The translations under genes and the position numbers were made by a program. From an uncultured Lachnospiraceae bacterium (GTDB taxonomy: Bacteria > Bacillota > Clostridia > Lachnospirales > Lachnospiraceae), in the NCBI GenBank assembly GCA_946182825.1, contig CAMGZH010000013.1, positions 1 through 64,000 of the forward strand: a DNA stretch of 64,000 nt, in the 5' to 3' direction. Each line of letters begins with the position of its first letter. Within the stretch, counting starts at the first letter, position 1. Positions 20,838 through 31,751 of the stretch are shown piece after piece. The notes beneath the pieces were generated by a model. It saw nothing but the letters and a program-made list of their open reading frames with translations. It made no database searches and was not told the origin of the DNA.

Positions 20838-22925
20838 ATGGAAATTTTAGTTACCGGAAATCTAAGGGCGTTGTCGCAGGACTTCTTTTCCTGCCTGTCT
20901 TCCGATTATCATGTTGTTACTTGTTCTGCGGAGGAAATGAAAGATCCGGGGGGGGATCGTCTGAAACAAATCTTCAGAAGTTACACCTTTCATTCGGTCT
21001 TCTTTTTTTCTGCGGAATGTGATGGAGAAGAGGAAATCGGTAATGAGACCGGCCTTCTGGATGAGATCATTACCCTTTGCTGTCGATATCAGGTGAAGCA
21101 GATGATCTATGTAACAGGAAATGGACCGAAGATGCATCGTGAGAGCGGAACCGTTTCTGATCGTATGATTCAGATGGAGGCCTGTGAGGAGATGTGTCGT
21201 CAGAGAGCCAAGGACGGTCTGTTGTCGGTTATGGTCCTTCGTGTACCGTTCATCTACAGCGTTAATGGATCGGACAGCAAGCTGGAGGGCTGGATCAAAG
21301 AAAGCATTCAGAATAAGGAGATTCATCTGCCGTCTCCATCCGATCATGTTACGGATTTTATCAACGATCAGGATCTGGGCCGGCTTTGTGCCAGAATGAT
21401 CGATATGCCGATCCAGCAGGATTACACGGTTCTTCACGCCTTCGGTGACAATGCCATGACAATCGAAGAGGCGGGAGAGATGGTATTTGCCCTTTCCGGG
21501 GAAAAGAAGAGCGCGGTCTACGGAAAGCGTCAGGAGGATCTGCCGGTGGAGTACCGGGGAGATGCGGTTCAGACGCAGTACAGCTGGTTCCCGCGCCATG
21601 ACGTAAGAGTGGATGTGCATACGATCTATGAGAAACAAATGAAGATCCTTGCGCAAGATGTGTCACAGAAGAAAACGGGTTTCTCCGGGGCAGTGATGGC
21701 AGAACGGATCCGGATCGGAGGAGAGATCCTTGCCATGTCAGCTTTGGCGGAGGTCTTAAATCTCTGGGTCAGCTCCAATGTACTGCTTCAGTTTCTGGAC
21801 TTTCGACTTCTGGTCGTTGTTTTAATGGGAACCATGAACGGATTTACGGCGGGACTTCTGGCGGCGATCCTTGCATGCATTTGCTTTTTAGGAGAGAGTC
21901 TTAATAGTGTCACAGCACAGGTGCTTTTCTTTAATATCCAGAACTGGATTCCGTTTGCACTTTATCTTCTGGTGGGAGCAGTTTGCGGTTACACCAAGGA
22001 CCGCGCGAAGGACAGGGAAGCAGATCTGTCCGAGGAGTACGATATCCTTGAGAGCAAGTATATTTTCTTAAACGGTCTGTATCAGGAAGTGTTAGAGGGA
22101 AAGGAAACCTTTAACGCCCAGATCATCGGTTACCGTAACAGTTTCGGAAGACTCTATCAGGTGGTACAGAGATTGGATTCTTTGATGCCGGATAAGATCG
22201 TACTGGAGGCTGTTGCGTCCTTAGAGGATATTTTGGAGAACGAGAGTATTGCCATTTATACCATTCAAAAGGACCGTCATTTTGCAAGACTGAGTGTATG
22301 CTCAAGATCCCAGAACAGGTTATTGTCAAAATCTCTTGACCTTTCTTCCCATCAGGAACTCTTTGCAGCATTGAAGCAAAGAGAATTGTATGTGAACCGT
22401 AAGATGAAGGAAGAGGATCCGTCCTTTGCCATGCCGCTTTTCGAGGGAGATGACCTGGTTGGAATGGTGACCGTTCAGAAGGCGGACGAACTTCAGATGA
22501 ATACAGAGTTTGCCAATAAGTTCAGTATTATTACCAATCTGATCTCAAGCTCTCTTCAGAGAGCCATCCGGTATGGAGAAGAGAAGGCTACGTCGGATTA
22601 TATCGAGGATACAAGGGTCTACCGTCCGGAAGTTTTCGGCAAGGTTCTTGCGATCCGTAGAGAAATGAAAGAAAAGAAGCAGGCAGACTATATGCTTTTA
22701 GTGGTAGATACAGCGAAGGATGGACTGCTTAAGACAGCCGATCGGTTGTGTGGCCTGATCCGCGCCAATGATATTTTGGGAGCAGGAGAAGACGGACATA
22801 CCCTCTATCTGCTCTTGTCGCAGACGTCCCAGAAGGATTTCGGATACATTGCGCCAAGACTGGAAGCATCGCAGGTGGAATACAAGATTCTGACAGAGGA
22901 GGAAGAAGGATGTTGTTTGGCATAG
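20838..22925 (+). CDS. pelD: PelD-like c-di-GMP receptor with N-terminal SDR/epimerase-like domain
   Basis: SDR-like N-terminal third; hydrophobic TM cluster (MSALAEVLNLWVSSNVLLQFLDFRLLVVVLMGTMNGF...), GAF-like region, degenerate GGDEF with RAND I-site; operon context with PelF/PelG. Confidence 0.82.
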   Translation: MEILVTGNLRALSQDFFSCLSSDYHVVTCSAEEMKDPGGDRLKQIFRSYTFHSVFFFSAECDGEEEIGNETGLLDEIITLCCRYQVKQMIYVTGNGPKMHRESGTVSDRMIQMEACEEMCRQRAKDGLLSVMVLRVPFIYSVNGSDSKLEGWIKESIQNKEIHLPSPSDHVTDFINDQDLGRLCARMIDMPIQQDYTVLHAFGDNAMTIEEAGEMVFALSGEKKSAVYGKRQEDLPVEYRGDAVQTQYSWFPRHDVRVDVHTIYEKQMKILAQDVSQKKTGFSGAVMAERIRIGGEILAMSALAEVLNLWVSSNVLLQFLDFRLLVVVLMGTMNGFTAGLLAAILACICFLGESLNSVTAQVLFFNIQNWIPFALYLLVGAVCGYTKDRAKDREADLSEEYDILESKYIFLNGLYQEVLEGKETFNAQIIGYRNSFGRLYQVVQRLDSLMPDKIVLEAVASLEDILENESIAIYTIQKDRHFARLSVCSRSQNRLLSKSLDLSSHQELFAALKQRELYVNRKMKEEDPSFAMPLFEGDDLVGMVTVQKADELQMNTEFANKFSIITNLISSSLQRAIRYGEEKATSDYIEDTRVYRPEVFGKVLAIRREMKEKKQADYMLLVVDTAKDGLLKTADRLCGLIRANDILGAGEDGHTLYLLLSQTSQKDFGYIAPRLEASQVEYKILTEEEEGCCLA

Positions 22926-23806
22926 TGTTTTTTCTGTATATTCTCGTATCTGCCTTGATGACCTTTCATCTGAGACTCTGGAAAAAGACCCTGTCGGCTC
23001 CTGTCTGGGTTGTGATCTGGCTGGTGCCATTTGTGGGATGCATTATAGCACAGCTGCAGCTTCGATCCGATCAGAAAAAGGATGCCGAGGAACGTCCCAT
23101 CGGGCTTGAAAAACTGATGGTGGATCAGATCCGCTATGAGAAGATCAAAATGTCAGATAACCGAAATCAGGATATAACGGTTCCTCTGGAAGAGGCTATG
23201 GTGGTAAATGATGAGAAGGTGCGAAGAAAACTGATCGTAGATGTGTTGAATCATGATCCAAAGCGTCACATCGATCTTCTGAAAAAGGCATCTATGACAG
23301 ACGATACGGAGCTTAGCCATTTTGCCACAACGGCCATGATGAATATCCAAAGTGACTATGAGGAGAAGATCGCAAAAATCGAGGCGGCATTAGAGGATGA
23401 GCCGAAGGATCCGGTACTTCTTCGGGCCTATCGGAGAGAACTGTCAGCCTACATCGGCAGCGGACTTGTGAGCGGAATCATTCGTAAGATCTACTGTGAC
23501 AAGTTGGCCGAAGTTTTGAGCAGGCTGGTTCAAATATATCCGGAGAGAAGACATTACAGACTGCAGTGGATCCGGATCCGGATCGAGTCCGATCAGCTTG
23601 AGGGGGTGGAAGAGGACCTTTCGTATGCGTTGAAGAAATGGCCGGATTATGTCCCCTTCTATCGGCAGTATGTTGCCCTGGCACAACATAAAAAGGACGG
23701 AGAACTGCTGGAGCGGGTATTGGAACAGGTAGAGAAAAACGGAGCCTTTCTGAGTCGAAAAGATAGGGAATGGTATGCATTCTGGAAAGGCAGGAGCCTT
23801 ACATGA
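22910..23806 (+). CDS. pelE: PelE-like membrane protein (N-terminal TMs plus TPR-like helices)
   Basis: Two N-terminal hydrophobic segments then helical repeats; position between PelD and DUF2194 protein. Confidence 0.65.
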   Translation: MLFGIVFFLYILVSALMTFHLRLWKKTLSAPVWVVIWLVPFVGCIIAQLQLRSDQKKDAEERPIGLEKLMVDQIRYEKIKMSDNRNQDITVPLEEAMVVNDEKVRRKLIVDVLNHDPKRHIDLLKKASMTDDTELSHFATTAMMNIQSDYEEKIAKIEAALEDEPKDPVLLRAYRRELSAYIGSGLVSGIIRKIYCDKLAEVLSRLVQIYPERRHYRLQWIRIRIESDQLEGVEEDLSYALKKWPDYVPFYRQYVALAQHKKDGELLERVLEQVEKNGAFLSRKDREWYAFWKGRSLT

Positions 23807-31062: not shown

Positions 31063-31064
31063 GT

Positions 31065-31751
31065 ATGAGCGTAAAAGATGTAATCAAAAAATCAATATTG
31101 GAGTCGGCAACCTATAATCAGGCGATCCGTGCGGATACCATCATCACCATGATCCTTGATCTGGCACTGGCCCTTTGCATCGGACTTTTGATCTATGAGG
31201 TCTACAAGAAGTTCTATAAGGGTGTGGTTTACAGCAGAAACTTCAGCATCACCCTTGTGGGAATGACGGTCCTTACCTGTATGGTGACTCTGGCCATCTC
31301 GACCAACATTGTGATCTCCCTTGGTATGGTCGGTGCGCTTTCTATCGTCAGATACCGTACCGCCATTAAGGAGCCTCTGGATCTGATGTATCTGTTCTGG
31401 GCCATTACGTCCGGAATTACAACAGGAGCCGGTATGTACCTTCTTTCCGGTTTGGCGTTTCTGATCATGCTGTTTCTGGTGTGGGGCTTTTCCAACCGTC
31501 CCATGGCAAAGGATGCCTATGTGTTGGTCGTGCACTATAACGGAACCCAGGTGTCCGACAAGATCCTTCGTCACTTTCAGCCAAAGCATCACATCAAGGT
31601 GCGTTCCAAGGTATTCCGTGGCGATCAGGTGGAGGAGACCTTCCAGTTCGTTGCAAACAGTGAAGAGCTGACCTTTACCGAGAAGATCCGTGATCTAGAA
31701 GAAGTTTCCGATATGACCCTTTTGAAGTTTGACGGGGAATACCACGGTTGA
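31065..31751 (+). CDS. DUF4956-domain membrane protein
   Basis: Four hydrophobic segments, LGMVGALSIVRYRTAIKEPLDLMYLFWAI signature. Confidence 0.88.
   Translation: MSVKDVIKKSILESATYNQAIRADTIITMILDLALALCIGLLIYEVYKKFYKGVVYSRNFSITLVGMTVLTCMVTLAISTNIVISLGMVGALSIVRYRTAIKEPLDLMYLFWAITSGITTGAGMYLLSGLAFLIMLFLVWGFSNRPMAKDAYVLVVHYNGTQVSDKILRHFQPKHHIKVRSKVFRGDQVEETFQFVANSEELTFTEKIRDLEEVSDMTLLKFDGEYHG

What the first reader, a model, noticed from the sequence alone, without database searches (positions are those of the whole stretch)
20838..31751. Gram-positive Pel-type exopolysaccharide operon extended by CotH-VTC-DUF4956
Eight tightly packed, partly overlapping genes: SDR-PelD, PelE-like, DUF2194 deacetylase, PelF, PelG, CotH lipoprotein, VTC-domain protein, DUF4956 membrane protein. 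The first five correspond to the described Gram-positive pel layout (c-di-GMP-controlled; no outer-membrane PelB/PelC). The last three are not part of the canonical Pel machinery and may add a surface-modification or polyanion step to the exported polymer. That function is inference.
Basis: partly seen in the sequence, partly recalled or inferred. Interest (0 to 1): 0.8.

Follow-up and report, generated by a model that had tools for sequence, protein, structure and literature searches.

The report
Pel biofilm operon with portable add-on
This is a gut-bacterium gene cluster of an already published type for making a biofilm sugar polymer (Pel), followed by three genes (a kinase-like surface protein, a polyphosphate-polymerase-like enzyme and a membrane protein) that, contrary to a recent paper, are not tied to Pel but also accompany other, unrelated polymer synthases.

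Summary
Eight same-strand genes at 20838-31751 encode PelD, PelE, PelADA (DUF2194), PelF, PelG, CotH, VTC and DUF4956, overlapping or at most 9 bp apart. The layout is not new. Whitfield et al. 2020 (PMC7112168) describe cotH, a polyP polymerase, DUF4956 and DUF4832 contiguous with pelDEADAFG in streptococci and clostridia. A 2025 study (PMC12345266) deleted the triad genes in S. intermedius: Pel was still made, in altered amounts in two mutants.

What the tools add: (1) The eight genes form one block between MBL and hemZ, which adjoin in four relatives lacking pel. (2) Among 120 Lachnospiraceae genera, 27 genomes have PelG and 91 have VTC; only 9 have them close together. (3) The triad exists without pel: with a GT2/HEAT locus in 15 Clostridia genomes (the order reported for C. 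perfringens NELoc-2), and once with MBOAT, AlgX and a GT2-PilZ synthase. This contradicts the 2025 statement that the arrangement was not found outside Pel. (4) VTC-DUF4956 is a near-obligate pair (57 of 58 pel-free loci); VTC folds like yeast Vtc4.

Best reading: a c-di-GMP-gated Pel operon with a portable polyP/surface-kinase module. The module's function is inferred.

The parts
20838..22925 (+). PelD-like: degenerate Rossmann/SDR-like N-terminus, membrane segment, GAF-like, degenerate GGDEF with RxxD (R642-D645)
   Evidence: weak DUF4118, GAF_3; motifs and alignment
22910..23806 (+). PelE-like membrane/helical-repeat protein
   Evidence: position and conservation; only sub-threshold HEAT/TPR matches
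23770..25644 (+). DUF2194, PelADA-type deacetylase-like protein
   Evidence: DUF2194 535.8 bits, DUF2334 28.3 bits
25645..27072 (+). PelF GT4 glycosyltransferase
   Evidence: NF038011 341 bits, cut-off 100
27060..28571 (+). PelG exporter-family membrane protein
   Evidence: PF16933 409 bits
28581..30356 (+). CotH kinase-fold lipoprotein (LCGC near the start; D334, N339, D357, D359 kept)
   Evidence: (5jd9)
30358..31062 (+). VTC-domain (Vtc4-like TTM) protein, polyphosphate-polymerase-like
31065..31751 (+). DUF4956 membrane protein with C-terminal ferredoxin/ACT-like domain
17716..20809 (+). Left boundary: rel and MBL-fold hydrolase; MBL is directly followed by hemZ in relatives without pel
31753..33396 (+). 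Right boundary: hemZ (radical SAM)
31729..31757 (+). promoter-like site TTGACG-17-TATAAT with TG, at the DUF4956/hemZ junction
   Evidence: consensus match only; total number of such matches is not above shuffles

Best explanation
A published-type Gram-positive pel operon plus a portable accessory module, sitting as one 8-gene cassette between MBL and hemZ. Inferred working: c-di-GMP binds PelD; PelF polymerises the amino-sugar; PelD/E/G pass the chain through the membrane; PelADA removes acetyl groups outside. The module works beside the synthase: VTC makes polyphosphate from ATP at the inner face of the membrane, with DUF4956 as its near-obligate membrane partner (anchor, regulator or conduit), and the lipoprotein CotH acts at the outer surface as a kinase or kinase-like binder. 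Together they tune amount, charge or cohesion of the matrix rather than make the polymer. Shown here: gene identity, cassette behaviour, module portability, the pair rule, VTC fold and retained residues. Taken from families or papers: Pel product, c-di-GMP gating, polyP synthesis. Shown by nobody found here: polyP export, the CotH substrate. The confidence value is for 'pel operon plus portable module, moving as a cassette'; for the polyP-at-the-membrane mechanism I give about 0.35.
For: Families above cut-off. PelD I-site and degenerate GGDEF, 25 GGDEF matches in the genome. Block present in G000 and G414, empty MBL-hemZ junction in G413, G420, G422, G021, other cargo in G415. VTC: best fold match Vtc4, E=2.4e-15 against about 1e-7 for other TTM enzymes; invariant charged residues R4, E6, K8, R67, R69, E81, K83, R143, R154, E189, K191, K216, of which those up to about residue 170 align with Vtc4. 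VTC-DUF4956 pair in 57 of 58 pel-free loci. Triad with other synthases. S. intermedius: the DUF4956 mutant made more and the CotH mutant less Pel, both aggregated less, Pel still made.
Against: No activity is shown for any triad protein here. The S. intermedius VTC deletion had no reported effect on Pel or aggregation. The genome also has a PPK, so VTC is not its only possible polyP source. DUF4956 shows no detectable relation to the yeast VTC channel and its model is only moderately confident (pLDDT 77). Module portability comes from one class of bacteria.
Confidence: 0.8

Rival explanations
1. The triad is a dedicated part of Pel biosynthesis: CotH, VTC and DUF4956 modify Pel itself (for example phosphorylate it) or are needed for its export.
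For: Tight linkage, conserved order from Lachnospiraceae to streptococci and Collinsella; gained as one block with pel at this site.
Against: Pel is made without each of the three genes in S. intermedius. The triad occurs in genomes without PelG and with unrelated synthases. Two thirds of pel genomes in this family lack a linked VTC.
Confidence: 0.12
2. The triad is a phosphate or magnesium homeostasis device (MgtC-like DUF4956 plus polyP storage) that merely shares the operon, so that phosphate status and matrix production are coupled.
For: MgtC-like features of DUF4956; the 2025 paper suggests phosphate metabolism; many VTC-DUF4956 pairs stand without any polysaccharide synthase nearby.
Against: Does not explain the extracellular partner, CotH or Cthe_2159, nor the repeated link to matrix synthases. 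PPK is present already.
Confidence: 0.25
3. The VTC domain does not polymerise phosphate: it is a TTM-fold protein that binds or hydrolyses another triphosphate or nucleotide signal, and the pair acts as a sensor for the synthase.
For: TTM folds have diverse activities; DUF4956 carries an ACT-like, possibly ligand-binding, domain; no bacterial VTC protein assayed as a polymerase came up in the searches.
Against: Vtc4 is by far the best fold match and the pocket residues are invariant.
Confidence: 0.2
4. The triad is a separate transcription unit that lies next to pel by accident.
For: VTC mostly lies away from pel in this family.
Against: Gaps of 1-9 bp, no promoter-like site on the + strand between PelG and CotH, order conserved across phyla, present or absent as one block in close relatives.
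Confidence: 0.05

Closest known systems
Gram-positive pelDEADAFG loci with accessory cotH-PPP-DUF4956-DUF4832 (Whitfield et al. 2020, PMC7112168)
   Same: Same core, same accessory genes contiguous with it, SDR-like PelD extension, in clostridia and streptococci
   Different: DUF4832 is absent from the window's locus; the downstream neighbour is hemZ
S. intermedius pel locus with SIR_1594-1592 (PMC12345266)
   Same: pelDEADAFG followed by CotH, polyP-polymerase-domain and MgtC/ACT-type genes
   Different: Window PelD keeps a degenerate GGDEF with RxxD; the streptococcal one lacks GGDEF. No SIR_1591-type hydrolase gene adjacent in the window
C. perfringens NELoc-2 (PMC2879425, PMC11677781)
   Same: VTC, a 222-226 aa membrane protein, and CotH in a row
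   Different: No pel; followed by a 685-aa protein, a HEAT protein and a GT2; the 222-226 aa genes are annotated tubulin/FtsZ
Eukaryotic VTC complex, Vtc4 (PDB 3g3q/3g3r, 8i6v; PMC9911596)
   Same: Polymerase domain fold and pocket residues
   Different: No SPX domain, no fused transmembrane domain; DUF4956 is not detectably related to the Vtc membrane part
Spore coat kinase CotH (PDB 5jd9)
   Same: Kinase fold and conserved D/N and WDxD motifs
   Different: Lipoprotein start and C-terminal extension; not in a spore-coat gene context

Membership tests
Gram-positive pel operon (pelDEADAFG) | PelF GT4 and PelG exporter side by side | tested here: met
Gram-positive pel operon (pelDEADAFG) | PelADA deacetylase-type gene in the cluster | tested here: met
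   DUF2194 535.8 bits, DUF2334 28.3 bits (cut-off 26); activity not tested
Gram-positive pel operon (pelDEADAFG) | PelD with c-di-GMP I-site RxxD in a degenerate GGDEF | tested here: met
   R642-A-N-D645 followed by EDGHT in place of GGDEF, aligned with relatives; binding not tested
Gram-positive pel operon (pelDEADAFG) | PelE | tested here: inconclusive
   position and conservation only
Gram-positive pel operon (pelDEADAFG) | product is a GalNAc/GalN-rich Pel polymer | not testable with these tools
   needs chemistry or antibody
pel accessory group 2 of Whitfield 2020 | CotH, polyP polymerase and DUF4956 contiguous with the core | tested here: met
pel accessory group 2 of Whitfield 2020 | DUF4832 gene in the same run (variable in the paper: moved upstream in S. 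gallolyticus, replaced in bifidobacteria) | tested here: not met
   neighbours are MBL and hemZ
VTC polyphosphate polymerase | Vtc4-like TTM fold with charged pocket residues | tested here: met
VTC polyphosphate polymerase | synthesis of polyP from ATP | not testable with these tools
   needs enzyme assay
CotH kinase | CotH domain with catalytic aspartates | tested here: met
   217.5 bits; D334, D357 and D359 kept in 69-71 of 74 rows
MgtC family (for DUF4956) | MgtC transmembrane domain plus ACT-like C-terminus | tested here: inconclusive
   model pLDDT 77; MgtC C-terminus 2lqj at E=0.003 among several ACT/NikR hits; 3 of 58 relatives match Pfam MgtC; the window protein does not

The most novel reading that the evidence does not exclude
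CotH-VTC-DUF4956 is a general matrix module. VTC-DUF4956 is a minimal bacterial counterpart of the eukaryotic VTC complex that makes polyphosphate and passes it to the outer surface beside exopolysaccharide synthases. There the polyP acts as matrix polyanion or as phosphoryl donor for the surface CotH kinase, which would have no ATP outside the cell.
Probability: 0.15. Interest if true: 0.85.

Novelty: new member of a known kind. Interest (0 to 1): 0.42.

Why it matters
The window locus is another example of a published operon type. The wider result matters more. The three accessory genes were described as Pel-associated (2020) and said not to be found as a set outside Pel (2025). They form a portable module that also accompanies a GT2/HEAT locus in many clostridial families, in the gene order of a chromosomal locus of chicken-gut C. 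perfringens, and a GT2-PilZ (c-di-GMP-type) synthase. That moves the question from 'what does it do to Pel?' to 'what do several unrelated matrix synthases need in common?', and gives natural comparisons to test it.

Tried and rejected
SDR domain of PelD by Pfam: no match. c-di-GMP riboswitch or other regulatory RNA nearby: only two tRNAs at 34195 and 35735. DUF4956 as kin of the yeast VTC channel: no fold or sequence support. The ~750-aa protein as PelADA, PelD, PelG or CotH: hhalign found no relation. The HEAT-versus-PelE comparison failed to run (the line printed for it is left over from the comparison before), so that relation is untested. The ~750-aa protein as a polysaccharide deacetylase, which would have given both synthases a deacetylase: no Pfam support; one member shows a sub-threshold GH72-like match (E=0.0059), so 'GH-like' is a weak label. 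Two region requests failed on length and one Pfam call on a wrong frame. My first context labels for four VTC rows were wrong (pel loci called pel-free) and four contig-edge loci had to be set aside; both were corrected by hand before the trees.

Full report
Observation. Eight + strand ORFs fill 20838-31751 with overlaps or gaps of 0-9 bp. Pfam and NCBIfam identify DUF2194, PelF, PelG, CotH, VTC and DUF4956 well above cut-off. PelD and PelE are recognised by position, by conservation across homologous loci and, for PelD, by a degenerate GGDEF region with RxxD (R642-A-N-D645), kept in nearly all full-length relatives aligned except the streptococci. The PelD N-terminus reads as a degraded Rossmann motif (TGNLRALS), as the published analysis says of clostridial PelD. 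The genome carries 25 GGDEF matches, so a c-di-GMP input is plausible.

Already known. Whitfield et al. 2020 (PMC7112168) described cotH, a poly-phosphate polymerase, DUF4956 and DUF4832 contiguous with pelDEADAFG in streptococci and clostridia, and noted the correlation with the SDR-like PelD extension. The 2025 S. intermedius paper (PMC12345266) deleted each gene. Pel was lost only in pelDEADAFG mutants. The DUF4956 mutant made more Pel and the CotH mutant less, and both lost more than half of their aggregation in artificial sputum medium. The same paper says its analyses failed to find the three genes in this arrangement outside the Pel locus. The finding itself is therefore a new instance of a described operon.

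One cassette. Rel, an MBL-fold hydrolase and hemZ flank the block. In G413, G420, G422 (same genus) and G021 (same family) MBL and hemZ are adjacent, overlapping or within about 22 bp, with no pel between. In G414 (same genus) all eight genes sit in the same place and order. In G415, whose Rel is 97% identical, nucleotide similarity stops at 20812 and resumes at 31745, and a different 2.5-kb insert (an ECF sigma factor gene and a 638-aa protein) lies there. The pel core and the triad thus come and go together at this site. Only 28 bp separate MBL from PelD, with no + strand promoter-like site there, so read-through from the rel side is likely (inference). A good promoter-like site lies at the DUF4956/hemZ junction, though such matches are no more frequent in the region than in shuffled sequence.

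Survey. In 120 Lachnospiraceae genomes, one per genus, 27 have PelG and 91 have VTC. Twenty-four have both, 67 have VTC without PelG, and in 9 the two lie within about 5 kb. Of 24 PelG neighbourhoods fetched, 7 show the complete triad, all with PelD and PelE detected; one more (L136) ends at a contig edge. Other pel loci carry different neighbours, for example DUF2304, GT4, GT2 and DUF4832 (L120). Among the 80 VTC genes most similar to the window's, most are pel-linked, but that sample is biased towards near relatives.

Triad without pel. In 58 pel-free VTC loci the next gene on the same strand is DUF4956 in 57, so VTC-DUF4956 is the core pair. Sixteen of 60 pel-free VTC entries had CotH in the locus. 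Four of these (L029, L030, L055, L061) are on short contigs whose upstream part is missing and were set aside. Clear pel-free triads include L021, L057, L089, L166, L181 and the second copy in L044. Genomes G112, G086, G003 and G013 hold CotH within three genes of VTC and no PelG at all. Where CotH is absent the gene after DUF4956 is often a Cthe_2159-type carbohydrate-binding protein (15 of 41 scanned).

Other synthases. L166 reads VTC, DUF4956, CotH, 752-aa protein, HEAT protein, GT2 with a chitin-synthase-like match. Searching 292 genomes of the class with the 752-aa protein found it in 24. Fourteen neighbourhoods from about ten families show the triad in the same order upstream of it (L185-L188, L190-L194, L196-L200), L166 is a fifteenth, five have the synthase part or the 752-aa relative without the triad (L201-L205), and two are cut off by contig ends (L189, L195). 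The published gene list of C. perfringens NELoc-2 (PMC2879425 Table 4; also PMC11677781) has VTC, a 222-aa protein, CotH, a 685-aa protein, HEAT and GT2 in the same order. Its 'tubulin/FtsZ' genes sit where DUF4956 belongs and have its length; I did not fetch that sequence. In Butyrivibrio sp. LB2008 (L044/L184) the triad is followed by MBOAT, an AlgX-like protein and a GT2 with a PilZ domain. So the statement that the arrangement is not found outside Pel does not hold.

History. A VTC tree (quick search, SH-aLRT support only) splits into a Cthe_2159-linked subfamily that is never pel-linked in this sample and a CotH/pel subfamily (100%). Within the latter the GT2-linked VTCs form one group (15 rows 94%; 16 rows with the PilZ-linked one 100%) apart from the pel-associated group (82 rows, 90%). 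Several pel-free CotH triads branch outside both. This fits a module older than its link to pel, but the early branches are long and the tool warns about them, so the order is tentative. Some pel-free VTCs lie inside the pel group, which fits later loss of pel.

How it may work. VTC: a confident model (pLDDT 90) matches Vtc4 far better than any other TTM enzyme (E=2.4e-15 against about 1e-7), and the charged pocket residues are invariant (which Vtc4 residues are catalytic is from general knowledge of the 2009 structures). CotH: kinase-fold match to 5jd9 with the motif aspartates kept and an LCGC lipobox-like start. DUF4956: hydrophobic helices and a C-terminal ferredoxin/ACT-like domain, weakly like MgtC. 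In yeast, cytosolic polyP synthesis is coupled to membrane translocation (PMC9911596, abstract). I infer that VTC makes polyP at the membrane with DUF4956 as partner, and that the module tunes the matrix or envelope next to a polysaccharide synthase. Export of polyP and the CotH substrate are unknown. The genome also has PPK. CotH and VTC occur once each in it, both here.

Verdict. Ordinary as a locus (published type, new member), with one useful correction to the literature: the triad is portable, not Pel-specific. The mechanistic reading (polyP at the surface beside the synthase) is testable and unproven.

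Noticed in passing
L185-L188, L190-L194, L196-L200, L166/L206: A recurrent six-gene clostridial locus VTC-DUF4956-CotH-(~720-770 aa)-HEAT-GT2 (chitin-synthase-like), in about ten families; the ~750-aa protein matches no Pfam family above cut-off. I found no paper describing it outside C. perfringens NELoc-2.
   Followed up: partly
L184:639-9251 (same record as L044): Second VTC-DUF4956-CotH copy followed by MBOAT, an AlgX-like protein and a GT2 with PilZ domain: a third synthase type next to the triad.
   Followed up: partly
L151, L154, L155, L156, L159-L161, L163, L168, L169, L173, L174, L177-L180: A separate VTC-DUF4956 subfamily followed by Cthe_2159 carbohydrate-binding proteins, never with pel or CotH in this sample; histidine kinases are common upstream.
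   Followed up: partly
L207:2752-5137 (G415): The MBL-hemZ junction that holds the pel cassette in the window carries different cargo in a close relative (ECF sigma factor and a 638-aa protein): possibly an insertion hotspot.
   Followed up: no
C. perfringens NELoc-2, CP4_0461 and CP4_0464 (PMC2879425): 222-226 aa 'tubulin/FtsZ' genes directly after VTC genes are probably DUF4956 membrane proteins; the paper itself predicts them in the cytoplasmic membrane. Sequence not fetched.
   Followed up: no
L120-L125, L127, L132, L133: Other Lachnospiraceae pel loci have a shared downstream set by size (about 127-139, 400, 265, 440 aa; in L120 DUF2304, GT4, GT2, DUF4832) instead of the triad, and often no recognisable PelD/PelE but a ~780-aa protein without Pfam match upstream.
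   Followed up: partly
L041:2254-11407: pelDEADAFG followed directly by VTC-DUF4956 without CotH: CotH is dissociable, the pair is not.
   Followed up: no
window 31810-31827: Terminator-like hairpin with T6 about 50 bp after the promoter-like site at 31729-31757, inside the start of the hemZ ORF; possibly a short leader/attenuator, possibly chance.
   Followed up: no
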